64,000 nt of DNA from a virus. The translations under genes were made by a program, and so were the position numbers. The notes beneath the pieces are model-generated. The model was given only the letters and a program-made list of their open reading frames with translations. It did not search any database and was not told the origin of the DNA. The stretch covers positions 62,001-126,000 of the IMG/VR virus record IMGVR_UViG_3300049215_000771; one strand, given 5' to 3'. Position 1 is the stretch's first letter. Each line of letters opens with the position of its first letter. Below, piece after piece: positions 10,822 to 62,243 of this stretch.

Positions 10822-11523
10822 ATGAGCGACAAACCCGCCATCTTGACGGAACTGGAGCGTGTGTACGAACTGTTGAATGAAAAGTTGTTCGATGGCAAGC
10901 TGAGTCCTGTCAATATCGTCATCGGTCGTGGCGCTGATTACCCGAAGAAGAAGGTGACACTGCGTTACTTCAACGAGTCGAAAAGCCTGGTCGTGGGAGC
11001 CGATTTCCCCGGCCTGGAATACGGCGATCTGCCGCTTGCGCTCCTGCACGAGATGATTCATATCAGGAATGCCCAGGCCGAAGTCGTCGATTGCACCACC
11101 AACCATTACCACAACAAGGCTTTCCTGACTGCGGCGCTTGCTGTGGGCCTCGTGGTCATCAAGCACAAGACCCAAGGGTGGTCGCTTACCACGACGATGT
11201 ATCCGAGGAACGTCGTCCAGAAAAAATACATCATGAAGCCCACCAGGGATGCCGCCACACGCCTTGGTGAAGTTTTCGCCCTCATCAAGTTCGACAAAAC
11301 GATCTTCAAACAAGCCAAGTCGGAAATCCGCCAACAAGCCAAAGAAGACAAGCCCAGCAAAACGTACTTCCTCAAGTACGTTTGCAACTGCCCTCCACCC
11401 CACAACAGCATTCGCAGCGGTCGCCGGCCCGATGGCCCCAATGCCCTCAATATCCAGTGCCAGAACTGTCATTCTACTTTCGTGTGCGTGACGGAACTGG
11501 ACCCCGATGATGAACAGGAGTAG
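10822..11523 (+). CDS. SprT-like zinc metallopeptidase
   Basis: 233 aa. The catalytic HExxH is LALLHEMIHIRNAQ, with a third ligand in NHYHNKAF. The C-terminal part holds a zinc ribbon (KYVCNCPPP ... IQCQNCHSTFVCV), the usual SprT/Spartan layout. SprT-family enzymes cut DNA-bound proteins; phage members may remove DNA-protein crosslinks. The stop is TAG and the next open frame continues in phase one codon later. Confidence 0.85.
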   Translation: MSDKPAILTELERVYELLNEKLFDGKLSPVNIVIGRGADYPKKKVTLRYFNESKSLVVGADFPGLEYGDLPLALLHEMIHIRNAQAEVVDCTTNHYHNKAFLTAALAVGLVVIKHKTQGWSLTTTMYPRNVVQKKYIMKPTRDAATRLGEVFALIKFDKTIFKQAKSEIRQQAKEDKPSKTYFLKYVCNCPPPHNSIRSGRRPDGPNALNIQCQNCHSTFVCVTELDPDDEQE

Positions 11524-11526
11524 TCT

Positions 11527-11772
11527 GTGCCGCAGTCTGATGAAAGCATCCTCGCCCATATTCGGAGCGAACTCGCTACCAGTCCGCATGTGAAACAGTA
11601 CAAACTGACCGTTTCCTACACTGGTTGCGGAAGCATCAGCATCACCGGCACCGTCCGAAGCTACTTCCACAAGCAGATAGCGAACGAGGCCGTCAGAAAA
11701 GTTTTGCAAAATACCAAGACCACTATCTTATTCAAGAACGATATTGATGTGGTGTCGGAAAGTCATGGCTGA
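11527..11772 (+). CDS. BON-domain-like small protein
   Basis: 81 aa from GTG 11527, with AGGAG seven bases upstream. ESILAHIRSELATSPHV followed by SISITGTVRSYFHKQIANEAVRKV has the helix-strand order of BON domains (lipid or small-ligand binding). It lies in the same frame as the SprT-like gene, separated only by TAG TCT, so it could also be made as a readthrough C-terminal domain. Confidence 0.6.
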   Translation: MPQSDESILAHIRSELATSPHVKQYKLTVSYTGCGSISITGTVRSYFHKQIANEAVRKVLQNTKTTILFKNDIDVVSESHG

Positions 11773-16975: not shown

Positions 16976-17173
16976 TTAGACGACAGCTTCAAGATGCTGT
17001 TCTTCAACCGGCTCGGCGAGTTCTGACCGAAGGACGGTAATATCCTTCTCGGCCTCGATTCCGATGCGGACCTTGTTGCGGTTGTCAATCCTAACAACTG
17101 TGATACGAATATCCTGCATGTTTGGTCCCTTGAGGATGATCGTTTCGTCTTTCTTCCGAGATAGCACAAGCAT
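16976..17173 (-). CDS. csrA: Carbon storage regulator CsrA
   Basis: 65 aa. MLVLSRKKDETIIL at the N-terminus, ITVVRIDNRNKVRIGIEA in the middle and DITVLRSEL match CsrA/RsmA over its full length, including the RNA-contact strand (LSRK) and the IGIEAP-like region (P replaced by E). CsrA binds GGA motifs in mRNA leaders and represses or stabilises transcripts. Carried on a phage it could redirect host translation. Ribosome site GAAAGGAAG precedes ATG 17173. Confidence 0.95.
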   Translation of the reverse strand: MLVLSRKKDETIILKGPNMQDIRITVVRIDNRNKVRIGIEAEKDITVLRSELAEPVEEQHLEAVV

Positions 17174-18836: not shown

Positions 18837-18930
18837 GGAAGCGAATGCCGTCTGGTGTAGGCCGCAGTCTTCAAAACTGTTGTAGGGTGTGAACAACACT
18901 CTAGGAGGGTTCGATTCCCTTTCGCTTCCG
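18837..18930 (+). tRNA. selC-like: tRNA with UCA anticodon, selenocysteine type
   Basis: 94 nt. The acceptor stem has 8 bp (GGAAGCGA 18837-18844 with TCGCTTCC 18922-18929), the T stem 5 bp (18905-18909 with 18917-18921, one G-U) around TTCGATT, giving the 8+5 stack of bacterial tRNA-Sec. Anticodon loop CTTCAAA (18869-18875) carries TCA at 18871-18873, on a 4-bp stem plus a G-U. The long variable arm has 7 bp (18884-18890 with 18896-18902) and a 5-nt loop. Length and shape match E. coli selC (95 nt); an opal-suppressor serine tRNA is the alternative. No selA, selB or SECIS is visible here. Confidence 0.85.
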
Positions 18931-20883: not shown

Positions 20884-22230
20884 ATGGCAAAGAAAGACAA
20901 GGGTTCGTCGGTCTGTGACTACTGTGGCAAAAGCAGCAAGCAGGCTGGCGTCTTGGTCGAAGGACCGCCAGCGAAAAATGAAGTGAACGGTCGTCCACCT
21001 GGATCGAGGCCGTACATTTGTCCTGGCTGCATCGAACTGTGTGCTGACGTGGTGAAGCAGAAGATGATGAAGCAGGGAACCGCTGATGTCATCCCCAAGA
21101 ACCTGCCGACTCCACGGCAGATCGTGGAGGAACTGGATCAGTACATTGTCGGCCAGGATCGAGCCAAGCGTGTCCTGGCCGTTGCCGTCCACAACCACTA
21201 CAAGCGGCTCAGGGACGATGCCGAGCGGCTGGACACCTACGACCCGGAAGATGAGTTGGCGAACACGACCATCGAGAAGGCGAACGTGCTGCTGGTCGGT
21301 CCTACGGGGTGTGGCAAGACATTGCTGGCCCGGACGCTGGCCCGCATTGTTGGTGTTCCTTTCGCAATCGGAGACGCCACGACGCTCACGGAAGCTGGTT
21401 ATGTCGGCGAAGATGTTGAGAACCTGGTTCTGAAGCTGGTTCGCAACGCCGAATTCAATGTCGAACTGGCCCAGCAGGGTATCATCTACCTGGACGAAGT
21501 TGACAAGATCGGGCGCACTACCTCGAACGTCTCGATTACTCGTGACGTATCAGGAGAAGGGGTCCAGCAAGCCCTGCTGAAGATGCTGGAAGGCACTGTC
21601 TGCAACGTGCCGCCGCAAGGTGGGCGCAAGCACCCGGAACAGCAGTACATCCAGGTGGACACGACCAACATCTTGTTCATCTGTGGTGGAACCTTCGTGG
21701 GCCTGGATCAGATCGTGAAACGCCGCACCGGAAAAAGTGGTATGGGTTTTGGCCAGGTCCGGCCTGCCGGCCTGACCGACCAGAAAGAAAAAAACCAACT
21801 CATCGAGCAGGTTTCGACGGACGACCTGGTGGAATTTGGCATCATCCCGGAGTTTGTTGGTCGGTTGCCGGTCATCGCTCCACTGATGGAGATGGACGAG
21901 GATGCCCTGGTGGACGTGCTGACGAAGCCCAAGGACGCCATCGTAAAACAGTACAAGAAGCTGTTCCGCATGGATGAAGTGAAACTGGAATTTACTGACA
22001 AGGCAATCCGTGAAATCGCCAAACTCGCCATCGAGAAGGGTACTGGCGCTCGTGGTCTTCGCAGCGTGGTGGAAGGTTTCATGACCGACACCATGTACGT
22101 TCTCCCGGAGCATAGCGGAGAAACCATCGTGATCGACGAAAGTATGGTCAAGGGCGAACGTCCGATCTTCGAGAAGCCCAAGGCTGTGGAAATCGTGGAA
22201 CCGCCCAAAGAAGAAGAAAAGGCAGCCTGA
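20884..22230 (+). CDS. clpX: ClpX-type AAA+ unfoldase
   Basis: 448 aa, near the normal 420-430. N-terminal zinc-binding domain ([12 protein letters not shown] ... ICPGCIELC), Walker [15 protein letters not shown], pore region [14 protein letters not shown], Walker [12 protein letters not shown], sensor-2 arginine near [12 protein letters not shown]. The ClpP-docking IGF loop reads MGFG here ([13 protein letters not shown]), so ClpP binding is likely kept. It may redirect host ClpP or remodel phage proteins. No clpP is in the window. Confidence 0.95.
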
Positions 22231-28259: not shown

Positions 28260-29228
28260 ATGCGCATCACACAACGTATCCCCAGCCCTACAGAACAACG
28301 TGCCCGGAAAATACTCGAACGTCCTTTCCGGTTCATTTTCAATGCGGATTTCGATAACCCGAAGAAACGGAAGGAAATCCTTGGCGAGATGCCAGATATT
28401 GAAAAGTTCAACGAACAAAGAAAGAAGGTGGTTCAGCTTCGCAACGGAGACAAGATTGCCCCGGAAATGCGTCCATGCTACGAGGAACCATTGCTCACAC
28501 GAGAACAGGAGTACCATCTTTTCAGGAAGATGAATTACTTCAAGTATCGGGCCAAGAAGTTGATGGCGGACCTGAATCCGAGACGATGCAGCGATAAGCG
28601 CCTTGATAAAATCGAGTCGCTGCTGGAGGAAGCCAACAAGATCAGGAACCAGATCGGCAACTCCAACTTCCGGCTCGCTACCCAACTGCTCCGCAAGCAG
28701 TCCAGTTTCTACAGGGAACACAGTTTGACGGACGGCCTCCTGAGTGATGCCTACTTTGATGTGTTGAAGGCTATTGACTACTTCAACTTCAACCTGGGCA
28801 ACAAGTTCTCGACGTATTGCACCTGGGTACTGCGGAAGAATTTCAGCAGGGATTTGAAAAATCAGGCGAAGTATCAGGAACGCTTCACGACGGGAATGGA
28901 AGACCCGCTGAACGAAATCAAAGATGATGGTGATGGCTACAAGGAAGAAATCACTTACGAGAACAACCGCAAACTGGTTGACAAATTGTTGGAACTTCTG
29001 GCTGAAAGCGACTGCAACGGTGACGTGCAGCGCCAGGTGTATGCGATTGAGGAGTGGTTCGGACTACACGGAAAAGAACACCGCACCCTCGACGCCATCA
29101 GTCAAGATATGGACGTTACCAAAGAAAGAGTCCGACAACTCAAGGAGAAGGGGTTGCAGGTGATTCGGGAAAAAGTGAAGGAACTTGGAATCGTATTTGA
29201 GGAAGCTGATGAAGAAGAAGTGGCCTGA
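28260..29228 (+). CDS. Sigma-70 family RNA polymerase sigma factor
   Basis: 322 aa. Region 1.2/2: LLTREQEYHLFRKMNYFKYRA, then LATQLLRKQSS ... GLLSDAYFDVLKAIDYFN and GNKFSTYCTWVLRKNFSRDL (regions 2.1-2.4). Region 4: LDAISQDMDVTKERVRQLKE plus KGLQVIREKVKEL. Region 3 is short. The LFRKMNY-KY wording recalls planctomycete sigma factors (memory-based). It probably directs host RNA polymerase to phage promoters, possibly the TTTACA class. Confidence 0.88.
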   Translation: MRITQRIPSPTEQRARKILERPFRFIFNADFDNPKKRKEILGEMPDIEKFNEQRKKVVQLRNGDKIAPEMRPCYEEPLLTREQEYHLFRKMNYFKYRAKKLMADLNPRRCSDKRLDKIESLLEEANKIRNQIGNSNFRLATQLLRKQSSFYREHSLTDGLLSDAYFDVLKAIDYFNFNLGNKFSTYCTWVLRKNFSRDLKNQAKYQERFTTGMEDPLNEIKDDGDGYKEEITYENNRKLVDKLLELLAESDCNGDVQRQVYAIEEWFGLHGKEHRTLDAISQDMDVTKERVRQLKEKGLQVIREKVKELGIVFEEADEEEVA

Positions 29229-30189
29229 AGGCACGCAACTGACCGTCAATGAGAATTCTTGTGATTGGCCCAGCACCAAGGACAAGAAGGAGTGGCTGTG
29301 TTCGGCGGCATTCCCGGCACCTGACAGTGCCGGGATTCGTCCTTTGTACATCACTGGTCGGGGCCGGGTAAAATCTACCTGGTTCGCATCCGGGTACGGA
29401 CCCACGGCCCTGGAAGCGGAAGATGCCTGTTGGGAAAATTACAACAGCATCATCAACTGCAAGCATGATCTTGAGAGGATCGCTCACGTCGATCTTCCCG
29501 ACGACCAGCCCAAGGTTTACTTGTTGGATGGTGATGCTGTTTGTAAAACGTGTCAATTGTATCTTCCTTTCTACTACATGGATGACCGGCTGCATAAGTC
29601 GATGTGCCTGGCCCATCGTGGACATGAACACCAGAAGCGGAAGTATGGCGACCGCCCTTACATCGTGCATCCCCGCCAGGTCTACACGAAAACTGCATTC
29701 TGGAAGCCGAAACGCCCGGAAGAAGAGCGCATCGTGATGGGTTGCGCCGCCTGGATGCACGACCTGAAAGAAGATTGTCAAAGCAAGGACTCCAACCCTT
29801 TCATCTCGGATGATGAGATGAGGGAAGCAGGCGGCGATCAATCGTTTCAGTTGGTGTACTGGCTCACGAACCCATCGAAAGGCGTGAAGAAGCCGAGGGC
29901 TTACCGGAAGCAGATGGATCGGGAGCATATCGCTGTTGCCCCGCACCCGGCGAAGATCATCAAGATGTTCGACCGTATCTGCAATCTGAATGATTTGTAC
30001 GAATGCAACGACATGGATTTCTTGGCTCTCTACGCCAGCGAGAGCCGGCTGTTGTGGGATGTCCTCAAGGATGCAGACGAGAAGCTGGCACGGGACATGC
30101 TCGCTGTGATCGAGCAAGTCGAGAGGAGAGCGCAAAATGGCATCAACACCAGGAGTTCGCAAGACCCACAAAATCTATCACAAGACTAA
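29209..30189 (+). CDS. HD-domain protein, MESH1/SpoT-hydrolase-like
   Basis: 326 aa from ATG 29209, overlapping the sigma gene by 20 nt. N-terminal ~110 residues unknown, then CKTCQLYLPF (possible zinc pair), then the HD hydrolase core: AHRGHEHQKRKYGDRPYIVHP, CAAWMHDLKED (HD pair) and IIKMFDRICNLNDLYEC. This order matches (p)ppGpp hydrolases. It may degrade alarmones during infection (inference). Confidence 0.75.
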   Translation: MKKKWPEGTQLTVNENSCDWPSTKDKKEWLCSAAFPAPDSAGIRPLYITGRGRVKSTWFASGYGPTALEAEDACWENYNSIINCKHDLERIAHVDLPDDQPKVYLLDGDAVCKTCQLYLPFYYMDDRLHKSMCLAHRGHEHQKRKYGDRPYIVHPRQVYTKTAFWKPKRPEEERIVMGCAAWMHDLKEDCQSKDSNPFISDDEMREAGGDQSFQLVYWLTNPSKGVKKPRAYRKQMDREHIAVAPHPAKIIKMFDRICNLNDLYECNDMDFLALYASESRLLWDVLKDADEKLARDMLAVIEQVERRAQNGINTRSSQDPQNLSQD

Positions 30190-33302: not shown

Positions 33303-33614
33303 ATGTTTTCCGCCGAAGATTTCACCGTTCAAAACTCGGAATTTCTCATCCGGCGTGGCTGGCGCATGTGGAGTCGTTCGGACTTGTTCGAGGGCAAGAT
33401 GTTGTTGCTTTGCCCGGTGGATGATTTCAAGAACATCCCCAAGGGAACCAGGATGACGCATATTTGCGGTGGACATGCGGTGAAGGGCAAAGACAAGATC
33501 ACAATGGACCACAAGGGCGGCGTGCTGGCTTACGGCATTTTGCTGGAAGACATCATTGTTCCCGACGAGAACAAGAAGTACCGAAGCATCGACGATTTTT
33601 CCGAACCTGGCTAA
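33303..33614 (+). CDS. Small protein with C-terminal KYRSIDD tag
   Basis: 103 aa from ATG 33303 (GGAG at good spacing). Strand-rich body (RRGWRMWSRSDLFEGKMLLL, GTRMTHICGGHAVKG). The last residues are KKYRSIDDFSEPG, a peptide shared with three other unrelated genes in this window. Function unknown. Confidence 0.65.
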   Translation: MFSAEDFTVQNSEFLIRRGWRMWSRSDLFEGKMLLLCPVDDFKNIPKGTRMTHICGGHAVKGKDKITMDHKGGVLAYGILLEDIIVPDENKKYRSIDDFSEPG

Positions 33615-33694: not shown

Positions 33695-35356
33695 ATGGGA
33701 CGTAAACTCGAAAAGTCCACCTACCCATCCGGCCACGGCCCGAACGATTTCCAGTGTTTCGGCCCGCCCGCCACCGAAGACGGGAATTTCGACACCTGCA
33801 AGATCGCCGACATGGGTTCCTTCTCCCAAGAGGAGAAAGATTCCAACAAGTATTATCACGCCGCCGTCGTCAAGTCGAAGATCAACGGCAACTACTACAC
33901 CTACTTCGAGTGGGGCCGGGTCGGGGCGTCCAAACCTGCTTTCCAGTTTGTCGAGTGTGGCAGCGAGGCCGACGCCCAGCGGGAATTCGCCGATCAGTGC
34001 CACGAGAAGAACGACAAGCGTGGCGTTTGGACAACCGTGGCGGGCCATCGCACGCTGACGGCCAAACCCAAGAAGGACGTGTATCTCGTCCGCCAACTCG
34101 CCACCCGTTCCACGGGTCTGCCCGATGCCAAAACCATCAAGCACACTGAGGGCGCAAAGCCGAAGCCGAAGCCCGGCAAGCCCGACGATGCCAGCGCTAC
34201 CGACAAGCCGACGAAGAAGGAAGCGAAACCAGCGGCCCCAGCCCGTCGTGCCGATCCAGTCACCAGTAAATTGCTTCAGGATTTGATCGGCGGCACGATC
34301 TCCTACACCCGTGGGAGCATGGCCGACGACTCGATTCCGACGCAAAATGCCATCGACATCGCTCGTGATGTTCTCACCGAGGCCGAGAAGCGACTGTTGA
34401 AGGTCGGCAACAGCCTCGATGACCAGATCGCCGACAAGGAACTTCGCCAGTTGTCCGGGGAACTGTACCGTCGCATCCCGAAGAAGAAGCCGGTTGGGAC
34501 GCCGGACAAGGTGTGGATTCTGTCCAGCGAGAATATCTTCTCCTGGCGGAACGACCTGGACGCCTTCGAGTCGGCGTTGTCGGCCCAGGCCGGCATTGAC
34601 GAACAGGCCGGTCAGGTTGCCGATCCCTTCCACGGCCTGCCCCTCACGATGGAATACATCGACCCGAAAACGGAACTCGGCAAGTTCCTCTACTTCTGGT
34701 GGCCGAAGGCGACGGCCAATCGCCACTACCACCTGAAAGACATGAAGATCAAGAATATGTGGAAGGTGGACCGCTTCGGCGACCCGGAGAAGGTTCGCCG
34801 CTCGCAGGACCGCATCGCCACCGAGATCGGCAAGGCGGCGCTGAAGGAACGGCCCTTGTTCCAGCCGTCCGAACGCTACGATGTTCCCGACATCAACGAG
34901 CGCAAGCTGTTCGGTCAGACCAACACGGCGCTGTTGTTTCACGGCACCCGTTCCGTCAACGTGAAGGGCATCTTGGAGAAGTCGCTGTTGCTGCCGAAGC
35001 AACTGGTCGGCGTTTCCATCAACGGGGCCATGTTTGGCCCTGGTCTGTATTGGGCCGATGACTGGAAGAAGTCGGCAGGCTACACCAGCTTGTCGGGTTC
35101 GCTCTACTCGGCGGGCTATGGCGGGGTTGCCGGTCGCCATGCCTTCATGTTCGCCGCCGATGTCGTCGTGGGGCAGCCACACGTTGCTCCTGGGCCGCAC
35201 GGTTATACCAGCCCGCCGAAGGGCCATCACTGTGTCTTCGGTATGGGCCGCAACCACACCAGCAGCCGCCAGAACAGCGGCGTGGAGAACAACGAGTGGA
35301 TCGTGTTCTCCGGTGAACAGTGCCGTCTCCGCTACCTGGCGGAATTCACGGCGTAA
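33695..35356 (+). CDS. Poly(ADP-ribose) polymerase with WGR domain
   Basis: 553 aa, PARP1/2-like order. WGR domain about residues 45-120 (W73-G74-R75 in YFEWGRVGASKPAF). Low-complexity Lys/Pro linker 150-185. Regulatory helical domain about 190-300 (SKLLQDLIGGTISYTRGSM, LRQLSGELYRRIP). Catalytic domain about 320-553: LLFHGTRSVNVKGIL (H416), FGPGLYWADDWKKSAGYTS (Y452/Y463) and ENNEWIVFSGEQCRLRYL (E534), so the H-Y-E triad for polymer synthesis is complete. Uses NAD+ to modify proteins or nucleic acids. ADP-ribosylglycohydrolases at 42579 and 60635 could reverse it. Target unknown. Confidence 0.93.
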   Translation: MGRKLEKSTYPSGHGPNDFQCFGPPATEDGNFDTCKIADMGSFSQEEKDSNKYYHAAVVKSKINGNYYTYFEWGRVGASKPAFQFVECGSEADAQREFADQCHEKNDKRGVWTTVAGHRTLTAKPKKDVYLVRQLATRSTGLPDAKTIKHTEGAKPKPKPGKPDDASATDKPTKKEAKPAAPARRADPVTSKLLQDLIGGTISYTRGSMADDSIPTQNAIDIARDVLTEAEKRLLKVGNSLDDQIADKELRQLSGELYRRIPKKKPVGTPDKVWILSSENIFSWRNDLDAFESALSAQAGIDEQAGQVADPFHGLPLTMEYIDPKTELGKFLYFWWPKATANRHYHLKDMKIKNMWKVDRFGDPEKVRRSQDRIATEIGKAALKERPLFQPSERYDVPDINERKLFGQTNTALLFHGTRSVNVKGILEKSLLLPKQLVGVSINGAMFGPGLYWADDWKKSAGYTSLSGSLYSAGYGGVAGRHAFMFAADVVVGQPHVAPGPHGYTSPPKGHHCVFGMGRNHTSSRQNSGVENNEWIVFSGEQCRLRYLAEFTA

Positions 35357-37602: not shown

Positions 37603-38391
37603 ATGGCTACCGCAGGAGTCCGCCCCGTTGTCGAACAGGTCTGTGATGAGCAGGTCCACAACGGCGGCATGTTCACCGCCCACGATATTACCCTGGAGGT
37701 CCGCAACCGGGGGCATCGTGTGGGGCATCACGAAGTTCGAGACGCCGTTCACGACTATTTCGCTCGTGGCGGTATGGGTGTCGCATATACCCGCACCACT
37801 ATCAGCGTTCCCGCAGGTGGCACGCCCTTCCTGTATCACCGCACCGCCGACGATCCGGCCACTTACGGCAATATCCGTGGCGTCGGCCTGGTCCCCAATC
37901 CGTCCGTCAATACGATCTCCGTTCCGCCCCCGTCCAGTATCGCCAGCACCGATGACGACGAGGAAGACGACGAAGAAGATGAAGACGATGAAGACGACGA
38001 CGTGGTGGACCCCAGCGCCCTGGGCTTGCCCAATTCCGTTGCAGGCGTGGCCGTCGCAAGCCGGCCCAAGACTCACCACAAGTCCAAGTCGGCCAACAAG
38101 AACAAGCTGGTCGGTCGCACTGTTGATGGCCGTGCAACGCTGTCGTTGCCCTCGCCGTTGGTTCGGGCTGCTGGGTTCAATCCTGGCGACAAGGTGTACG
38201 CTACCGGCGTCCCTGATGGCGTGGAAGTCACCTTACACCCGACCAGTGCCGCCCTGTGTCGCAAATACACCGTGGACAACCACGGCCATATCCGCCTGAC
38301 GCAAGGTCTGTTGAAGCGTGCCGGCATTCCTGGTGGCGCTTACGATGTGTCGGGCGACAATACCAAGATCACGGTCAAACTTCACAAGTAA
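37603..38391 (+). CDS. Winged-helix plus AbrB-like regulator candidate
   Basis: 262 aa. Residues 1-60 look like a winged helix (MFTAHDITLEVRNRGHRVG, HHEVRDAVHDYF). Residues about 115-135 are an acidic D/E run. The C-terminal part has two similar swapped-hairpin-like segments (GRATLSLPSPLVRAAGFNPG and GHIRLTQGLLKRAGIPGG), as in AbrB/SpoVT DNA-binding folds. Probably a transcription regulator or chromosome-binding protein; inference. Confidence 0.65.
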   Translation: MATAGVRPVVEQVCDEQVHNGGMFTAHDITLEVRNRGHRVGHHEVRDAVHDYFARGGMGVAYTRTTISVPAGGTPFLYHRTADDPATYGNIRGVGLVPNPSVNTISVPPPSSIASTDDDEEDDEEDEDDEDDDVVDPSALGLPNSVAGVAVASRPKTHHKSKSANKNKLVGRTVDGRATLSLPSPLVRAAGFNPGDKVYATGVPDGVEVTLHPTSAALCRKYTVDNHGHIRLTQGLLKRAGIPGGAYDVSGDNTKITVKLHK

Positions 38392-38487: not shown

Positions 38488-40164
38488 ATGAGCGACACCG
38501 TTACCCTGACCCTGGAAGAGTTGGAAGAAATCAAGGCCCAACTCGTCGAAATGGATGCCGTTCTCACTCGGCTCCTGGCCCAGCCCCTTGTTTATGCAAC
38601 GGTCGTGAAGGCCGACAACAAGTTTCATCTGGACGCCTTCGAGCAGGGCGACCGGATGTTGGTGATCGACAAGAACCTTCGCAAGCAGAAGAAGTTCTAC
38701 GGCAAGATCGCCAGCCAGGGCGTCGATGACGAGGGCTGGGTCATCTTGGAATATCCCACGGGCGGGCGTGACCGGCTCAACATCGGCCTCAACGGGGAAT
38801 TGCCGCAGGTGAAACTGATCGGCAAGGACGACGGCACCAACGTCGTCATCGCCCATGACGGCAAGCTGTTCGAGGTTCACGGCTTGCCGGGGAAGGAATT
38901 CCATCCGTCGTCCACCGTCAAGGTGGATATGGAAACGAAGCAAATCCACGACGATGCTGGCGTCAGCGCCGCTGGTGACGTGGCCTACATCAAGACCATC
39001 GTGGACGAGGAACACGTCGAAGTGGAGAGCAACGGCCACAGCCGGGTCGTCATCCACGGCGTCAAGGACGAGGAAGGCGAATCCGTCAAGATCGAGCCGG
39101 GCGACCGGGTGATGTTGGATCACACCAACACCATCACCGTCCGTGTTCTCGAAAAGGACAACGCCGACCGCTTCAACCTGATCGAGCAGCAGAACGTCAC
39201 CTGGGACCAGATCGCCGGCCTGGGCGACGTGAAGGAATCGCTCGTCGAAGCGCTGGAACTGCCCTACCAGCACCCGGACATCTTCAAGTTCTACAACAAG
39301 AAGCCGCCGAAGGGCGTGTTGCTCTACGGCCCTCCGGGTTGTGGCAAGACCCTGTGTGCCAAGGCCGCTGCCAACAGCATGGCCCGCATCCACGGCAAGG
39401 AAAACTACCAGTCCGGGTTCATTTACGTCAAAGGCCCGGAATTGTTGAGCAAGTGGGTCGGCCAGACCGAGGCCGAAATCCGCCAACTGTTCGTCCGTGG
39501 CCGGGAACACTACAAGAAGCACGGCTATCCCGCCTTGCTGTTCATCGACGAAGCCGACGCCATCCTCCCGATGAGGGGTTCCGGCAAGTCGTCGGACGTG
39601 GAAAATACCATCGTTCCGATGTTCCTGTCGGAAATGGACGGCCTGGAGGAAGCACACCTGATGGTGTTGCTCGCCACCAACCAGCCGAAGCGTCTGGACC
39701 CCGCCGTGACTCGTGAAGGTCGTGTGGACCGGAAGGTTCGTGTCGGTCGTCCGACCGCCAAGAACGCACACGAATACTTCAACCTGCACATGAAGGGGAT
39801 TCCGGTCGCCGAGGGGTTCGAGGCGGAAGAACTGACGGCCCTGACGATCCGTGACCTGTTCAGCGAGAAGCGGGGTCTGTACACCGTCCAGTACAAGAAG
39901 CAGACCCATCTGTTCAAGCTGGGCGATGCCGTCAGCGGCTCGATGATCGCAACCATCGTGGATCACGCCACGAGCCAGGCCATGAAGCGTGACCTGCACG
40001 CCGGCACGCAAACGGGTGTGAACCACACCGACTTCCAGGACGCCGTGAACGGAATCTTCAAGCATCACGTCGAACTCAACCCGACGTTCGATCTCGAAGA
40101 ATTCTGTGATGCCAACAGCATCAACCGGAACGAGGCGACGTTCTCGAAACTGGTTCACGCATAA
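38488..40164 (+). CDS. ARC/Mpa/PAN-like AAA+ proteasomal ATPase
   Basis: 558 aa. N-terminal coiled coil (LTLEELEEIKAQLVEMDAVL), then two OB-fold-like beta regions (about 35-230), then one AAA+ module: Walker A LLYGPPGCGKTLCAKAAA, pore-loop area YVKGPELLSKWVGQTEAE, Walker B LLFIDEADAILPMRG, arginine fingers near REGRVDRKVRVGRP. The layout is that of bacterial ARC/Mpa ATPases that feed the 20S proteasome. The C-terminus (SKLVHA) lacks the usual HbYX-type docking end, so a proteasome partner is doubtful. May unfold or remodel proteins by itself. Confidence 0.88.
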   Translation: MSDTVTLTLEELEEIKAQLVEMDAVLTRLLAQPLVYATVVKADNKFHLDAFEQGDRMLVIDKNLRKQKKFYGKIASQGVDDEGWVILEYPTGGRDRLNIGLNGELPQVKLIGKDDGTNVVIAHDGKLFEVHGLPGKEFHPSSTVKVDMETKQIHDDAGVSAAGDVAYIKTIVDEEHVEVESNGHSRVVIHGVKDEEGESVKIEPGDRVMLDHTNTITVRVLEKDNADRFNLIEQQNVTWDQIAGLGDVKESLVEALELPYQHPDIFKFYNKKPPKGVLLYGPPGCGKTLCAKAAANSMARIHGKENYQSGFIYVKGPELLSKWVGQTEAEIRQLFVRGREHYKKHGYPALLFIDEADAILPMRGSGKSSDVENTIVPMFLSEMDGLEEAHLMVLLATNQPKRLDPAVTREGRVDRKVRVGRPTAKNAHEYFNLHMKGIPVAEGFEAEELTALTIRDLFSEKRGLYTVQYKKQTHLFKLGDAVSGSMIATIVDHATSQAMKRDLHAGTQTGVNHTDFQDAVNGIFKHHVELNPTFDLEEFCDANSINRNEATFSKLVHA

Positions 40165-41783: not shown

Positions 41784-42512
41784 ATGCCAATCCAGATTGG
41801 AAACATCGAGAAGAAAACCGACTCCCGCTGGCTCAACCTGTTTGAAGTCGATTATATCGGCATGACAGGCAAACCCGGCAAATGGCAGTTCGCCTCACGC
41901 AATCCCAACCCACAGCCCGGCCCCAATCCCATCACATCCAACGCCGTCATCATCGTTCCCCTCCTCAAAGATGGGCGCAAGCGGAAACTCGTCGTCATCA
42001 AGGAATTTCGCATTCCCCTGGGTGATTACGAGTATGCCGTCCCTGCCGGCCTGTTCGATCCGGGCGAGGAACTTGTCAAAACCGTCAAGCGGGAACTGAA
42101 GGAAGAAACGGGCTTGAAAGGGACGAAGATTCTCGTCACCAGCCCCGCCGTGGTTTCCAGCGCTGGCCTTTCCGATGAAGCCGTCAACTACGTTTTCGTC
42201 GAATGCACTGGCATCCCTGACAACAGTGGCAACGAGGGTACTGAAGACATCACCATCGAAGTTCTGGACATCGAAGGCGTGGCGAAACTCCGACGCTCCG
42301 GGGCCAAGATGTCTTCCAAGTTGTGGCCCATCCTCCTCATGTTCGAGGCGATGGGAAAAATCGCCATTCCCAGGAGCATCAGAGATGAAAATCGTAAGGC
42401 ATTACAACGAGGAAGAACTGAAGCAACTGCTGACCAAAGCGGTGGAGTTTCCGCAGAAGAACCGGCAGTTGAAGGTGAAGGAGATCAAGTTCCGAGTCAC
42501 GGAGCAGCGTGA
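41784..42512 (+). CDS. Nudix hydrolase, ADP-ribose pyrophosphatase-like
   Basis: 242 aa. Nudix box GLFDPGEELVKTVKRELKEETGLKG at about residues 95-119 (G-5x-E-7x-REL-x-EE-x-GL). The strand context (VVIKEFRIPLGDYEYAVPAG) is like ADP-ribose pyrophosphatases, which cleave ADP-ribose to AMP and ribose phosphate. The last ~42 residues are low-complexity and overlap the next frame by 128 nt, so the true stop may differ or a frameshift may exist. Confidence 0.85.
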   Translation: MPIQIGNIEKKTDSRWLNLFEVDYIGMTGKPGKWQFASRNPNPQPGPNPITSNAVIIVPLLKDGRKRKLVVIKEFRIPLGDYEYAVPAGLFDPGEELVKTVKRELKEETGLKGTKILVTSPAVVSSAGLSDEAVNYVFVECTGIPDNSGNEGTEDITIEVLDIEGVAKLRRSGAKMSSKLWPILLMFEAMGKIAIPRSIRDENRKALQRGRTEATADQSGGVSAEEPAVEGEGDQVPSHGAA

Positions 42513-42582
42513 CGCCCACGACCGGCCTGGATTCGGGAACGTCGTCGAAGCGGAGATCGAAGTGGAGGAAGAAGAAAGATGA
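42385..42582 (+). CDS. Small acidic protein
   Basis: 65 aa from ATG 42385 (AGGAG upstream). MKIVRHYNEEELKQLLTKAV then KEIKFRVTEQRD and an acidic tail. Overlaps the Nudix 3' end and the next ATG. Confidence 0.55.
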   Translation: MKIVRHYNEEELKQLLTKAVEFPQKNRQLKVKEIKFRVTEQRDAHDRPGFGNVVEAEIEVEEEER

Positions 42583-43580
42583 ACCTAAAAGACAAAGTAC
42601 GAGGAACCTTCCTGGGCCTCGCCATTGGCGATGCCCTGGGGAAAGCTACGGAATCGCTGTCGTTCAACACCATCATGGAGAAGTTCGGCAGGATTACCGA
42701 CTACATCAGCAATCCCCACCACAAGTATTTCGATGGCGCTCCCGTTGGCTCCTGGACTGACGACACTCAGCTTTCTCTTGCTGTGGCTCGTGGCATTGCC
42801 CACAAAGGCGAATTCGACCTGGATGCCATTGCCGAGGAACATTGTGTTGAGTTCATGAAAACTGTGGCTGGTTGGGGCAACACTACCAGAGAAGCCATCG
42901 CCAAGATCGTGGACGGTGGGCACTGGTCCCAGGCCAGCCTCACAGACCAACCCAACCGAGGCGTCGGCAATGGCGTGGCAATGAAGGTTGCCCCTGTTGG
43001 TTGCTACATGGCCTTGACCAACCCCGAATGCAACAACCCGCAGTGGGGCGAGGATGTGAAAAAGCTGATGAAGCTGGCGACTATGACGCACTTCACCAGC
43101 ATGGCGATTACTTCGGGATTCGCCCAAACCTTCGCCGTGTTCAAGTGCATGATGTCGGACCCCGAAAACTTCGATGTCAAGTCCTTCATCCGAACCATCA
43201 ACGGCGCAGGCATGATGGGGCGGCGGTACTTGTTCAAGACCATTACCCAGGATGACATTGCCAACAGGTTCGGCCTGTTGGAAAAATACGACGAGTACCC
43301 GCCCGAACGCATCATCGCCGAGTTGAAGGGTAGCTGCTACGTCTACGAGTCGCTGCCGTTCACCTTCATGTTCTTCGTCCGTAACCCACACAGTATTGAA
43401 ACGCTGTACGATGTGGTGACGGCGGGCGGGGACACGGACACCAATGGCTCCATGCTCGGCGCTCTCCTGGGCGCTCTGCACGGCACAGACATCTTTCCCG
43501 AACATCTGGTTGACGGCCTCCGTGAACGTGAGATGGTCATGGAAGTCGCCGACAGGATGTACGACAAGTTGAAGGGCTAA
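42579..43580 (+). CDS. ADP-ribosylglycohydrolase (DraG/ARH family), copy 1
   Basis: 333 aa. Signatures: LGLAIGDALGKATES at the N-terminus, SWTDDTQLSLAVARG (metal-binding T-D-D), GVGNGVAMKVAPVG, and VTAGGDTDTNGSMLGALLGA (second metal site D-T-D). Removes ADP-ribose from proteins or nucleic acids. Located right after the Nudix gene, so release and degradation of ADP-ribose may be coupled. Opposes the PARP at 33695 (inference). Confidence 0.93.
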   Translation: MNLKDKVRGTFLGLAIGDALGKATESLSFNTIMEKFGRITDYISNPHHKYFDGAPVGSWTDDTQLSLAVARGIAHKGEFDLDAIAEEHCVEFMKTVAGWGNTTREAIAKIVDGGHWSQASLTDQPNRGVGNGVAMKVAPVGCYMALTNPECNNPQWGEDVKKLMKLATMTHFTSMAITSGFAQTFAVFKCMMSDPENFDVKSFIRTINGAGMMGRRYLFKTITQDDIANRFGLLEKYDEYPPERIIAELKGSCYVYESLPFTFMFFVRNPHSIETLYDVVTAGGDTDTNGSMLGALLGALHGTDIFPEHLVDGLREREMVMEVADRMYDKLKG

Positions 43581-45570: not shown

Positions 45571-46002
45571 ATGATGGACGTTTGCAACAACCGGAAGGCC
45601 CGCTATGATTACCATATCCTCGATACTGTCGAGGCGGGGATCGTATTGCAGGGCACTGAAGTCAAGGCTCTCCGGGCCAAACTTGCCTCATTGGAAGGTT
45701 CTTACGCCGTCATTCGTGACGGCGAAGTGTGGATGATTGGCTCTCATGTTGAAGAGTACGACCACGGCAACCATCACAACCACAACCCCAAGCGGGAGCG
45801 GAAGCTGTTGGTCAAGCGACACGACATCAAGAAACTTTCTGGTGAGGTTCGTGTGAAGGGAAAAACCCTCGTGCCCCTTCGCATTTACTTCTCCGGGCGC
45901 TGGGCCAAGGTGGAACTGGCGCTGGCGCAGGGCAAGCAGACGCACGATAAACGGCAAACCCTGAAAGAAAGGGAGCAGCGTAAGGAAATGAAGGGCTATT
46001 GA
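45571..46002 (+). CDS. smpB: SsrA-binding protein SmpB
   Basis: 143 aa, full length. NRKARYDYHILDTVEAGIVL, GTEVKALRAKLASLEGSYAV, EEYDHGNHHNHNPKRERKLL, KTLVPLRIYFSGRWAKVELA and the basic DKRQTLKEREQRKEM tail match SmpB throughout. SmpB carries tmRNA to stalled ribosomes. No tmRNA gene is visible here; it may lie elsewhere or be the host's. Confidence 0.95.
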   Translation: MMDVCNNRKARYDYHILDTVEAGIVLQGTEVKALRAKLASLEGSYAVIRDGEVWMIGSHVEEYDHGNHHNHNPKRERKLLVKRHDIKKLSGEVRVKGKTLVPLRIYFSGRWAKVELALAQGKQTHDKRQTLKEREQRKEMKGY

Positions 46003-55589: not shown

Positions 55590-56207
55590 ATGTGGCGAAA
55601 ATTTATCTGGCTGCTTCGACGATTGATCGGGCGGAAACTGCCTCCTGCCCCTGCTACGCTGCCAAAAGGCACCAGATACTACAATCCCAATATCGAAGCA
55701 GGACGTTTCGGCGTCCTGGTTGTGGAGAAGGAACCGACACCGAGGACAATTTTCGGAGCAAGGGGGACGACGCATTACTTGGCGTTTCCGTATATTGTAT
55801 TTATCATTCGATTTTCGGTGCAGCATCGGAGCGGCAAGCCGGTGTATATTTTCGATCACCTGCAAGTTGGTTTCTCGATGACTTCATTGACTTCTGCCAA
55901 TGATTATATTTCTGCATTGCCGCTCTCAAATTACGAGGGCAGTTTGCCCCTTGGTGTGTGTTTGGGAGAAGGGCCAGCAAGGTACAGGCACAGTTACTCC
56001 AGTTACGATTCGCCCGAAGAAATGGCGAACTCAATCATCGCTTACTACTGGTCCAGTAGCTTCACGAAACTGCAACCTGAAGAAATGAAACGCTGGGCCA
56101 AGAAATCACCAGACAAGTTGTCCAAGTTGTTCTACAACACCGACACGCTGCGGCGGATTGCAATGCTTCCAAAACACGAGGAGTTGGGCTATGGGACACA
56201 GCACTGA
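55590..56207 (+). CDS. Putative Prok-E2-type (UBC-like) protein, copy 1
   Basis: 205 aa from ATG 55590. HYLAFPYIVFIIRFSVQH, then ANDYISALPLSNYEGSLPLG, VCLGEGP and SPEEMANSIIAYYWSSSFTK. The last two segments resemble the V-C-L-G and F-x-S-x-F-T/N motifs of Prok-E2 family D/PRTRC-B proteins (UBC-like fold, some in ubiquitin-like systems). Paralogous to 59666 over its whole middle. No E1-like gene is nearby, so enzymatic role is uncertain. Confidence 0.6.
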   Translation: MWRKFIWLLRRLIGRKLPPAPATLPKGTRYYNPNIEAGRFGVLVVEKEPTPRTIFGARGTTHYLAFPYIVFIIRFSVQHRSGKPVYIFDHLQVGFSMTSLTSANDYISALPLSNYEGSLPLGVCLGEGPARYRHSYSSYDSPEEMANSIIAYYWSSSFTKLQPEEMKRWAKKSPDKLSKLFYNTDTLRRIAMLPKHEELGYGTQH

Positions 56208-56691
56208 GCAGCATGTTCGAGTCGGCACGAGCATCATCGTGGTTCGTGAGGGCAAGGTGTTGGCGGGCCGGCGAAAAGGGTCGCACGCCGAAGGTTTGAT
56301 CTCTTTCCCTGGCGGGCATCTCGATTTTGGTGAGACTTGGGAAAAATGTGCCTTCCGAGAACTCGAAGAAGAATGTGGGGACCAGTTACAGGTAAAGTTG
56401 AGGCCGCAAGCTAACATTGCCTCGCTTGGTCAGTCGCCGCCTGTCGGCCCACTAAGCTGGCGGCTGGACTGGTTCACTACGAACGACATCATGCCTCAGT
56501 ACGGCAAGCACTACATCACGATCTTCATGGTCGCTGATTGGGTTTCCGGGGAGGCTATCAATACCGAGCCTGACAAGTGTGAGGGCTGGGAATGGATCAC
56601 CTTCGACGAACTGAAGGCGCTGGGTGATAAGGCCGCTCAGTGGATTCCCATCAACCTCATCGAAGCCTACCGAGGAAGGATTGGCATATGA
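56191..56691 (+). CDS. Nudix hydrolase, NUDT15/MutT-like
   Basis: 166 aa from ATG 56191. VGTSIIVVREGKVLAGRRKG precedes the Nudix box GGHLDFGETWEKCAFRELEE ECG. Layout close to NUDT15/MTH3 nucleotide-sanitising enzymes that remove oxidised or modified dNTPs. Overlaps both neighbours by a few bases. Confidence 0.88.
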   Translation: MGHSTEQHVRVGTSIIVVREGKVLAGRRKGSHAEGLISFPGGHLDFGETWEKCAFRELEEECGDQLQVKLRPQANIASLGQSPPVGPLSWRLDWFTTNDIMPQYGKHYITIFMVADWVSGEAINTEPDKCEGWEWITFDELKALGDKAAQWIPINLIEAYRGRIGI

Positions 56692-59392: not shown

Positions 59393-59463
59393 GCCCCGTT
59401 GGTACATTGGCTGTGCCGTGGCCTCTAAAGCCACAGAAGTCGGTTCGATTCCGGCACGGGGTA
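59393..59463 (+). tRNA. tRNA with CUA (amber) anticodon, first of a pair
   Basis: 71 nt. Acceptor GCCCCGT/ACGGGGT (G-U at the first pair), D stem GTAC/GTGC, anticodon arm GTGGC-CTCTAAA-GCCAC with CTA at 59425-59427, T arm GTCGG-TTCGATT-CCGGC. The 7-nt loop is identical to that of the E. coli supF amber suppressor. It reads UAG; charging amino acid unknown. Confidence 0.85.
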
Positions 59464-59466
59464 CAA

Positions 59467-59539
59467 GCCCTGGTAGCTCAGTGGTCAGAGCGGTTGACTC
59501 TAAATCAACGTGTCGTGGGTTCGATCCCCACCCAGGGCG
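59467..59539 (+). tRNA. tRNA with CUA (amber) anticodon, second of a pair
   Basis: 73 nt, three bases after the first tRNA. Acceptor GCCCTGG/CCAGGGC, D stem GCTC/GAGC, anticodon arm GTTGA-CTCTAAA-TCAAC with CTA at 59500-59502, T arm GTGGG-TTCGATC-CCCAC, discriminator G. The body differs clearly from the first, so the pair is not a simple recent duplication. Confidence 0.88.
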
Positions 59540-59560
59540 CTGCATATCATAGGGAGGTTC

Positions 59561-60634: not shown

Positions 60635-61582
60635 ATGAACGACAGGCGCAAAGGAACACTGATCGGCCTGGCGATTGGCGATGCTCTTGGAGCCGCCGTC
60701 GAATTTCGTGATCCAGGCACTTTCGCCCCCGTCACCTGTTATCGCAGCGGCGGGCCGCACAGTCTTGCTCCTGGGCAATGGACTGATGACACCAGCATGG
60801 CCCTGGCGCTGGCTGACAGCATCGGCGAGATGGGTTGGAATCTGCACGATCAGATGACCCGTTATGTCAAGTGGTGGCAAGAAGGTGAGTACGCTGTCAA
60901 CGGCTGGTGTTTCGACATCGGCGGGACGACGGCTTCCTCTCTCAGCAACTTCATGGAAACCAATCAGGTTGAAGGTTGCTCCGACCCCGGCGAAGATATG
61001 AGTGGCAATGGGTCCATCATGAGGCTGGCTCCCGTCGCCATCAAGTATTACGACTACTTCCCCAATCGAATCAGGGAGTTGTCGATGATCGCCGATGACT
61101 CCAGCCGTACCACGCACGCCAGTCCGCAATGCCGTTCGGCGTGTCGTGCCCTGGCAGTGATGCTTGCCGGCCTCATCAACGGCGAGAAGAAGGAAGTGGT
61201 GTTGGATACCGACAGTGGTTGGTATTTTCTTGCTGAATTGCACAACATCGAACCGCTGCACCCGAAGATTCTGGATGTTCTGAAGGGCAGCTACAAGACG
61301 AAGAATCCGCCCGAAATCAAGGGATCGGGTTGGGTTGTGCAAAGCCTGGAGGCGGCATTGTGGGCTTTCTACAACTCTGGCAGTTTTGAGGAAGCGGTGC
61401 TGAAAGCCGTCAACCTGGGGGATGACGCTGATACAACTGGCGCTGTGTGTGGACAACTTGCCGGCGCTTGTTGGGGCGAGAGTGGCATTCCTACGTCACT
61501 GTTGACGGGATTGGCTCGTCACGACATGCTCAACAAGGCGCTGGTCAGCTTGATGGGAGCAGAGAATGTCATTTCAGGGTAA
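60635..61582 (+). CDS. ADP-ribosylglycohydrolase (DraG/ARH family), copy 2
   Basis: 315 aa. IGLAIGDALGAAVEFRDPG, GQWTDDTSMALALADSIGEM (metal T-D-D), SGNGSIMRLAPVAI and AVNLGDDADTTGAVCGQLAG (D-D-A-D-T-T) are the DraG metal sites. Only moderately similar to copy 1, so probably acquired separately or with a different target. Has its own promoter. Confidence 0.93.
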   Translation: MNDRRKGTLIGLAIGDALGAAVEFRDPGTFAPVTCYRSGGPHSLAPGQWTDDTSMALALADSIGEMGWNLHDQMTRYVKWWQEGEYAVNGWCFDIGGTTASSLSNFMETNQVEGCSDPGEDMSGNGSIMRLAPVAIKYYDYFPNRIRELSMIADDSSRTTHASPQCRSACRALAVMLAGLINGEKKEVVLDTDSGWYFLAELHNIEPLHPKILDVLKGSYKTKNPPEIKGSGWVVQSLEAALWAFYNSGSFEEAVLKAVNLGDDADTTGAVCGQLAGACWGESGIPTSLLTGLARHDMLNKALVSLMGAENVISG

Positions 61583-62243
61583 GTTCCTTGTCGCCCGCCC
61601 GATTCTGAAAGACCCCGTGTTCGGCGGCAAGGTGGTGTTCATTACCCGTTCGGACAAGAACGGGTCCGAGGGGTTCATTCTCAATGGCCCTCAGTGTGGT
61701 CGTGTTGGTTTCGGCGAAATGAAGGGTGAGGAAGTCCCCCAAGATCGGGAACAAATGACCAAGATGGTCAACGAGGGTAAGATTGACTCGGCCCCTCTCT
61801 ACAGTGGTGGGCCTTGTCAAAGTCCATCCATCGTGATGTTCCACGGCTACCCGGATTTCATCGAATCTGCCGACAAGGACGAATTCCAGATTGGTTCGAC
61901 CCTGTTGGATGAAGTGAGTGGGGACAAAACCATCATTCCGGGCGTCTACTACGGCGAACCGTCAACGATGGCTCAGATCATCATGGGCAAGCGGGTTGTT
62001 GAAGGAAAATTTCGGTTCTTCAATAACCAGGCTGCCTGGAGCGCCGGCCAACTCGAACGTGAGATTGAAGCGGGAGCGTGGGATGTAGTGGAAGCCGACA
62101 TTGAGGCTGTCTTCGACCCGGCCAAGGCCGACAAAATCTGGTCTGAAAAATACAACTATCAGGCCAAAGATTTCATCAAGGACATGCTTCAAAATGACGA
62201 CGACCTGCCCCCGTTCCGAATGCCGGAACCTTCTGACAATTGA
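61566..62243 (+). CDS. YqgE/AlgH-like (UPF0301) protein
   Basis: 225 aa, overlapping the ADP-ribosylglycohydrolase by 17 nt. FQGKFLVARPILKDPVFGGK, SEGFILNGP, YSGGPCQSP, and FRFFNNQAAWSAGQLEREIE with AGAWDVVEADIEAVF match the family. Cellular role of YqgE is unclear; alginate-regulation links are weak. Confidence 0.85.
   Translation: MSFQGKFLVARPILKDPVFGGKVVFITRSDKNGSEGFILNGPQCGRVGFGEMKGEEVPQDREQMTKMVNEGKIDSAPLYSGGPCQSPSIVMFHGYPDFIESADKDEFQIGSTLLDEVSGDKTIIPGVYYGEPSTMAQIIMGKRVVEGKFRFFNNQAAWSAGQLEREIEAGAWDVVEADIEAVFDPAKADKIWSEKYNYQAKDFIKDMLQNDDDLPPFRMPEPSDN

What the first reader, a model, noticed from the sequence alone, without database searches (positions are those of the whole stretch)
33695..35356. 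Complete PARP1-like polymerase in a phage-like genome
WGR, helical regulatory domain and catalytic domain with H-Y-E triad are all present. Phage ADP-ribosyltransferases are usually small ARTs (such as T4 Alt/ModA); a WGR-PARP with polymer-forming Glu is unusual. WGR domains sense DNA ends, so activation by DNA breaks during infection is plausible.
Basis: partly seen in the sequence, partly recalled or inferred. Interest (0 to 1): 0.72.

Follow-up and report, generated by a model that had tools for sequence, protein, structure and literature searches.

The report
Megaphage PARP with its own erasers
A very large bacterial virus carries a complete relative of the human DNA-damage enzyme PARP1, and the same genome also carries enzymes predicted to remove ADP-ribose marks and to recycle the spent fuel, which suggests a reversible marking system that reacts to DNA breaks during infection.

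Summary
The gene is real and correctly placed. Window 33695-35356 (+) encodes a 553-aa WGR / helical-domain / ART protein with H416-Y452-E534. Its AlphaFold model (pLDDT 88) superposes on DNA-bound human PARP1 from WGR to C-terminus. Two close phage copies show purifying selection. The record (532,729 bp) is a phage: terminase and full gp23-type capsid protein.

WGR-PARPs in phages are already known: six named phages carry relatives, one annotated with all three domains, and published surveys list phage PARPs. "Unusual" is too strong; "polymer-forming" is unproven.

(1) In my tree this PARP forms a tight clade with other large viral records and Planctomycetota. (2) Phage and planctomycete loci share a neighbour gene's N-terminal domain; 5 of 11 planctomycete loci have a macrodomain gene next door, and 4 related phage loci have an ADP-ribosylhydrolase 3-8 kb downstream, as here. 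(3) The same record encodes two ADP-ribosylhydrolases, two macrodomains, a microbial-type PARG and a nicotinamide phosphoribosyltransferase: predicted erasers and NAD+ salvage.

Most likely it is a DNA-end-gated ADP-ribosyltransferase in a reversible cycle during infection. Identity is firm; trigger, product, targets and teamwork are inferred.

The parts
33695..35356 (+). WGR-HD-ART PARP, 553 aa
33824..34018 (+). WGR domain (residues 44-108), motif W73-G74-R75
   Evidence: PF05406 5.3e-10; alignment
34256..34606 (+). helical regulatory domain (about residues 188-304)
   Evidence: helices in the model; profile match to PARP1/2 through this part; VIA-align
34742..35353 (+). ART catalytic domain (about residues 350-553)
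   Evidence: PF00644 7.8e-19 over 400-551; strand at 351-360
34940..34942 (+). codon of H416
   Evidence: invariant
35048..35050 (+). codon of Y452
   Evidence: invariant
35294..35296 (+). codon of E534
   Evidence: invariant
37603..38391 (+). neighbour gene; its N-terminal part is shared with the PARP neighbour in 6 of 11 planctomycete loci; weak MazE-like C-terminal match below cut-off
41784..42512 (+). Nudix hydrolase, between PARP and ARH; homologue in L002 and L005
   Evidence: PF00293 5e-11
42579..43580 (+). ADP-ribosylhydrolase 1 (ARH/DraG family)
   Evidence: PF03747 5.4e-52; downstream of PARP in L002, L004, L005, L006
60635..61582 (+). ADP-ribosylhydrolase 2
   Evidence: PF03747 4.9e-73
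56191..56691 (+). second Nudix hydrolase; link to the PARP not shown
   Evidence: PF00293 1.1e-19

Best explanation
This is a phage-encoded, PARP1/2-type ADP-ribosyltransferase. Its WGR domain most likely binds broken or free DNA ends and, through the helical domain, releases the ART domain to transfer ADP-ribose from NAD+ onto proteins near the ends, itself included. The marks are made reversible by the phage's own hydrolases (two ARH proteins, a microbial-type PARG, macrodomains), and the released nicotinamide is fed back by the phage's nicotinamide phosphoribosyltransferase. The likely use is control of DNA ends during infection, for example attracting or blocking repair and nuclease proteins at breaks in phage or host DNA. 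Shown by sequence and model: domains, residues, purifying selection in close relatives, phage context, presence of the hydrolase and salvage genes. Inferred: DNA gating, product (mono or poly), targets, and that these enzymes act as one cycle.
For: Domains and residues; fold over the DNA-bound PARP1 WGR-HD-ART arrangement; purifying selection; two ARH genes, two macrodomain genes, a PARG and a NAMPT in the same record. An ARH lies 3.2-7.5 kb downstream of PARP in 4 related phage loci and 7.2 kb in the window. In Planctomycetota the clade's PARP has a MacroD-type macrodomain gene next door in 5 of 11 loci, a different writer-eraser pairing. A bacterial WGR-PARP (Herpetosiphon) is reported to need DNA and to make long PAR chains (PMC4245714, passages).
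Against: No biochemistry. The Tyr two before the catalytic Glu of human PARP2 (PARP1 Y986, recalled) is Asn532 here, so elongation is uncertain. Of 9 records that bear this PARP clade, 4 show no ARH (those of L018, L019, L020, and the 78-kb fragment of L003), and 7 of the 9 show no PARG; several are fragments. The PARG loop has 13 residues between GGG and QEE, against the published 6-8. Macro and NAMPT-type genes are common in jumbo phages (about 56% and 33%; ARG about 5%) and are read there mostly as counters to NAD+-derived immune signals (PMC9503650), so co-occurrence does not show one pathway. The four phage loci with ARH share other neighbours and are not independent. No NMN adenylyltransferase was recognised.
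Confidence: 0.55

Rival explanations
1. Host take-over enzyme that works like T4 Alt/ModA: it ADP-ribosylates host RNA polymerase or other host proteins to redirect them, and DNA ends are not the true trigger.
For: Modification of host macromolecules is the role usually inferred for phage ARTs, PARPs included (PMC7824862; PMC9503650). A sigma-70-like gene lies upstream at 28260-29228.
Against: T4-type enzymes are not WGR-HD-ART proteins; the domains linked to DNA gating and autoinhibition are conserved across the clade. Planctomycete chromosomes keep the same enzyme with no phage genes in the flanks that I read.
Confidence: 0.22
2. Superinfection-exclusion or abortive device: cut DNA from a competitor or a failing infection over-activates the PARP, drains NAD+ and stops the cell, while the hydrolases and NAMPT set the threshold.
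For: A DNA-gated NAD+ consumer beside NAD+ salvage and ADP-ribose hydrolases; toxin-antitoxin-like ART-ARG pairs are described in Aeromonas phages (PMC9503650).
Against: PARP and ARH are not adjacent as in a simple pair (7.2 kb apart in the window) and 3 large records of the clade lack the ARH. Planctomycetes keep the gene on bacterial contigs with a MacroD neighbour.
Confidence: 0.13
3. Planctomycete chromosome, or a bacterial gene cargo that has no role in infection.
For: Closest non-viral relatives are Planctomycetota, and SmpB and AlgH-like genes lie in the window.
Against: Terminase and full gp23-type capsid gene in the record, synteny with LR756511.1 and with L002-L005, purifying selection between phage copies.
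Confidence: 0.04

Closest known systems
Uncultured phage LR756511.1 (595,163 bp), WGR-PARP
   Same: 61% identical over 99% of the query; shared neighbours, ARH 4.2 kb downstream; also a PF10021 PARG
   Different: record carries no annotation; one ARH found there against two here
Planctomycetota WGR-PARPs (e.g. Neorhodopirellula pilleata Pla100, L081)
   Same: 52-60% identical in 11 loci, nearly full length in 10; same clade; PARP neighbour shares an N-terminal domain with window 37603-38391 in 6 of 11
   Different: no phage-type gene recognised in the five flanks read; MacroD-type macrodomain next door in 5 of 11, ARH not found in those flanks
Klebsiella phage vB_KpM_FBKp34 PARP (QQV91759.1), Xanthomonas phage XacN1 BBA65562.1, and the PARPs of phages RAS14, 05F01 and KP13-16
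   Same: aligned over WGR, HD and ART with H-Y-E; WGR by Pfam in the three tested, FBKp34, XacN1, RAS14
   Different: 22-24% identical, 423-433 aa, shorter WGR, first letter of the WGR motif Y or F, different clade
Human PARP1, PARP2 and PARP3
   Same: WGR-HD-ART order and fold, WGR motif, catalytic residues
   Different: about 20% identical; no zinc fingers or BRCT as in PARP1 (recalled); Tyr two before the catalytic Glu of PARP2 is Asn; clade-specific N-terminal segment and an extra stretch before the HGTR motif

Membership tests
DNA-dependent PARPs (clade 1, PARP1/2/3 type) | WGR domain | tested here: met
   PF05406 5.3e-10, above cut-off; motif W73-G74-R75
DNA-dependent PARPs (clade 1, PARP1/2/3 type) | helical regulatory domain before the ART domain | tested here: met
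   profile match through this part and fold; PF02877 itself gave no hit on this protein
DNA-dependent PARPs (clade 1, PARP1/2/3 type) | ART domain with H-Y-E | tested here: met
   PF00644 7.8e-19; H416, Y452, E534 invariant in 17 of 17 and 49 of 49
DNA-dependent PARPs (clade 1, PARP1/2/3 type) | activity switched on by DNA ends | not testable with these tools
   needs an enzyme assay
DNA-dependent PARPs (clade 1, PARP1/2/3 type) | poly(ADP-ribose) product | not testable with these tools
   Glu present; Tyr two before it absent in 17 of 17 rows; sequence does not decide
Microbial-type PARG (PF10021), candidate partner | PARG catalytic domain with GGG-X6-8-QEE | tested here: inconclusive
   PF10021 2.6e-16, PDB poly(ADP-ribose) glycohydrolase 5zdg 1.6e-19; GGG and QEE present but 13 residues apart
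ADP-ribosylglycohydrolase (ARH/DraG), candidate partners | family domain and metal-site motifs | tested here: met
   PF03747 5.4e-52 and 4.9e-73; WTDDT in both, GGDTDT and GDDADT read by eye (motifs recalled)
ADP-ribosylglycohydrolase (ARH/DraG), candidate partners | activity on poly(ADP-ribose), as in ARH3 | not testable with these tools
   best PDB matches are MJ1187 and DraG and other ARH entries; ARH3 matches are weaker
Nicotinamide phosphoribosyltransferase (NAMPT/NadV), candidate partner | NAMPT N-terminal and NAPRTase domains | tested here: met
   PF18127 1.9e-38, PF04095 6.5e-52; best PDB NAMPT chain 1.2e-154
Tailed phage (the record) | terminase and major capsid protein | tested here: met
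   PF03237 6.6e-12 (control rings in 6 of 14 genomes), Gp23 PF07068 9.9e-87 (control 0 of 14)

The most novel reading that the evidence does not exclude
A bacterial virus carries an essentially complete, DNA-break-gated poly(ADP-ribose) cycle of its own: a PARP1-like writer, PARG and ARH erasers, macrodomain processing and nicotinamide salvage. The writer was exchanged between phages and Planctomycetota together with part of its neighbour gene.
Probability: 0.3. Interest if true: 0.82.

Novelty: new variant of a known kind. Interest (0 to 1): 0.56.

Why it matters
Whether true poly(ADP-ribose) signalling works outside eukaryotes is unsettled: a 2014 survey counted eleven bacterial species with all proteins needed and said it was not known whether the metabolism is functional there (PMC4245714, passages). 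The phages it names with PARP (Aeh1, phi4:1) and with PARG (phage G) are different phages. One phage record with writer, PARG, ARH, macrodomains and NAMPT gives a compact system to test. It also bears on gene traffic between phages and bacteria, because phages and planctomycetes here share the PARP and part of its neighbour gene.

Tried and rejected
Host chromosome: rejected for this record (terminase, gp23 capsid gene, synteny with other viral records). For the relatives, terminase was over the cut-off in 4 of 9 records of the clade and below it in one more; those of L003, L005, L018 and L019 gave none. L018 and L019 share no other window gene, so their phage nature rests on IMG/VR.

NMN adenylyltransferase: the only PF01467 match reads by eye as a phosphopantetheine adenylyltransferase (motif recalled), so that step would need the host or an unrecognised gene.

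Direction of transfer: the phage rows are not one group in the best tree, but holding them together is not rejected (p-AU 0.17; the tree warns of long branches, L020 and L024), so direction is unresolved. Left out before the 93-row tree: L023, L069, L075, L087, L088 (truncated or fragmentary) and exact duplicates. L085 went in with an uncertain upstream start.

A genome-contig search with the single protein found nothing; the profile search did.

PARP as a rare phage gene: rejected. IMG/VR can include non-phage DNA, so the 65 viral-contig loci are not all proven phages.

The gene call left out PARP and 29185-30189 because it set an overlapping start; I put four ORFs back by hand.

Full report
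What was checked. The ORF at 33695-35356 (+) is intact, 553 codons, ATG to TAA. Pfam finds PARP catalytic (7.8e-19, residues 400-551) and WGR (5.3e-10, 44-108) but not the regulatory-domain model. A profile from 17 relatives matches human PARP2 and PARP1 through WGR, helical and ART domains in one stretch (9e-65, 3.1e-64). AlphaFold2 with a 49-row alignment gives mean pLDDT 88.4 and pTM 0.85. Foldseek's best rows are human PARP1 and PARP2 on DNA breaks (8.2e-23 downwards, TM by query 0.38-0.62 in the first 12 rows). VIA-align places model 8-553 on 4dqy_C with Z 24.9, rmsd 3.5, 409 residues; its top rows are PARP4 and PARP1 catalytic domains (Z 25.8 downwards). H416, Y452 and E534 are invariant in 17 of 17 and 49 of 49 rows.

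The gene is under selection. L002 against L003 gives 60 synonymous and 12 nonsynonymous differences, dN/dS 0.053; window against L002 gives 0.15 with dS 1.5, so that figure is rough. Of six pairs computed, dS was saturated in two.

The genome. The window is 62001-126000 of a 532,729-bp virus record. The record has a terminase (6.6e-12) and a complete gp23-type major capsid protein (9.9e-87). Many window genes near the PARP recur around it in LR756511.1 (595,163 bp, uncultured phage) and in L002-L005.

Relatives. INPHARED: 7 records with a match, one at 61% over 99% (LR756511.1) and six named phages (Stenotrophomonas CM1 and RAS14, Klebsiella 05F01, FBKp34 and KP13-16, Xanthomonas XacN1) at 22-37% over 26-65% of the query. 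Five of the six were aligned (CM1 was not fetched) and three scanned by Pfam, all three with WGR. FBKp34 is annotated with WGR, regulatory and catalytic domains. Plasmids: 13 records. Viral contigs: 65 loci with the profile. Genome contigs: 27 loci with the profile, 11 of them Planctomycetota at 52-60% identity.

Tree. In the 93-row tree the window sits with 7 other viral rows and 9 planctomycete rows (SH-aLRT 100). In a 22-row careful tree the 9 planctomycetes form one group (99/100); the 7 viral rows do not, but holding them together is not rejected (p-AU 0.17). This fits gene exchange between phages and planctomycetes, direction unknown. A planctomycete host is an inference only.

Gene neighbourhood. 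In the viral clade, PARP is followed by homologues of window 37603-38391 in L002, L004, L005 and L006 (partly in L003, which ends there) and then by an ARH of the 42579-43580 type in L002, L004, L005 and L006. From PARP end to ARH match is 7.5, 3.2, 6.0 and 4.2 kb, and 7.2 kb in the window (PARP ends). L018, L019 and L020 share the PARP but show no ARH in locus or record. In planctomycetes, 6 of 11 loci have a gene beside PARP whose N-terminus matches window 37603-38391 (L081, L082, L083, L084, L086, L089; 37-44% identity), and 5 of 11 have a MacroD-type macrodomain gene just downstream (L081, L082, L084, L086, L088). Two of the 11 hold under 700 bp downstream.

ADP-ribose and NAD+ genes in the same record. 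ARH at window 42579-43580 (5.4e-52) and 60635-61582 (4.9e-73). Macro domains at record 171813-172136 and 523771-524190 (control rings in 8 of 14 genomes); the first is nearest to PDB entries 5m3i and 5m31 (2.1e-37, 2.3e-35; that these are DarG macrodomains is recalled). A microbial-type PARG lies at 524815-525138, close to the second macrodomain (1.4e-17; PDB 5zdg 1.6e-19). Its GGG and QEE are 13 residues apart against the published 6-8. NAMPT is at 398094-398819 (control 6 of 14; best PDB match 1.2e-154). Nudix proteins lie in the window and near NAMPT. Of 22 PARP-bearing records examined, this one included, ARH is in 7 and PARG in 3; the PARG control rang in 0 of 14 genomes, the ARH control in 5 of 14.

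Interpretation. Identity as a WGR-HD-ART PARP is firm. The intact WGR motif and HD argue for control by DNA ends, as in eukaryotic PARP1-3 (established knowledge) and as reported for Herpetosiphon PARP (PMC4245714). The polymer claim stays open: the residue two before the catalytic Glu is Tyr in human PARP2 and in none of the 17 aligned rows, and PARP4, the top structural row, is named a mono-ADP-ribosyltransferase; against this, PMC5966428 lists PARP3 and PARP4 among enzymes capable of poly-ADP-ribosylation. The erasers and salvage enzyme make a reversible cycle the most economical reading. But macro and NadV-type genes are common in jumbo phages (about 56% and 33%) and are read there mostly as counters to NAD+-derived immune signals, while ARG domains are in about 5% (PMC9503650); that these enzymes work together here is inferred.

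Comparison with print. Seen as passages or sections: PMC4245714, PMC5966428, PMC7824862, PMC9503650. They report phage PARPs, phage PARGs and viral ARHs. The searches listed no paper that I recognised as describing a phage with PARP, PARG, ARH and NAMPT together; beyond these four papers I saw listings only, and most subscription papers are not held.

Noticed in passing
record G000 (17 + and 6 - sites); in the window at 33579, 55556 and 60561; loci L122-L144: A peptide like 'KKYRSIDDPWE' recurs on short proteins: 23 sites in 532 kb (0 for the pattern read backwards; 0 in 7 related records). In 21 of 23 distinct ORFs it lies 1-9 residues before the stop, in 2 near the start, with varied codons, so it is kept as a peptide rather than as a DNA repeat. 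The ORF just upstream of PARP (33303-33614) carries it; PARP does not. It looks like a targeting or packaging tag; function unknown.
   Followed up: partly
L118-L121 (record about 58.2, 351.4, 453.5, 517.8-518.5 kb); also viral contigs L149 and L152: Tagged ORFs hold five non-overlapping 28-58 aa pieces of the gp23-type major capsid protein (59-78% identity to the full copy at 339 kb). Tagged ORFs in other viral contigs found by the pattern (8 stretches, 6 contigs) also carry what look by eye like capsid-protein pieces. No Rfam match at gathering score was found in L117-L121.
   Followed up: partly
window 59393-59540: Two tandem tRNAs with anticodon CTA (amber); TAG ends 6 of 93 called genes.
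   Followed up: partly
window 10822-11772: An ORF ending in TAG at 11523 continues in frame for 82 residues, a possible amber read-through.
   Followed up: no
window 18837-18930: A tRNA-Sec gene; Sec machinery and selenoproteins were not sought.
   Followed up: no
L108 531-1211 and 1447-1893 (record about 171-172 kb): A DarG-like macrodomain gene (name recalled) follows a 226-aa protein without a Pfam match whose C-terminal part looks by eye ART-like; possibly a DarT-type pair or an anti-DarT device.
   Followed up: no
window 45571-46002, 20884-22230, 16976-17173 (-), 61566-62243: Bacterial-type genes on the phage: SmpB (1.3e-55) and AlgH-like (3.5e-23); ClpX-like and CsrA-like by eye.
   Followed up: no
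window 38488-40164: AAA ATPase (4.3e-33), by eye like proteasome-type ATPases, between PARP and ARH; 68% identical in L002, 38% in L020.
   Followed up: no
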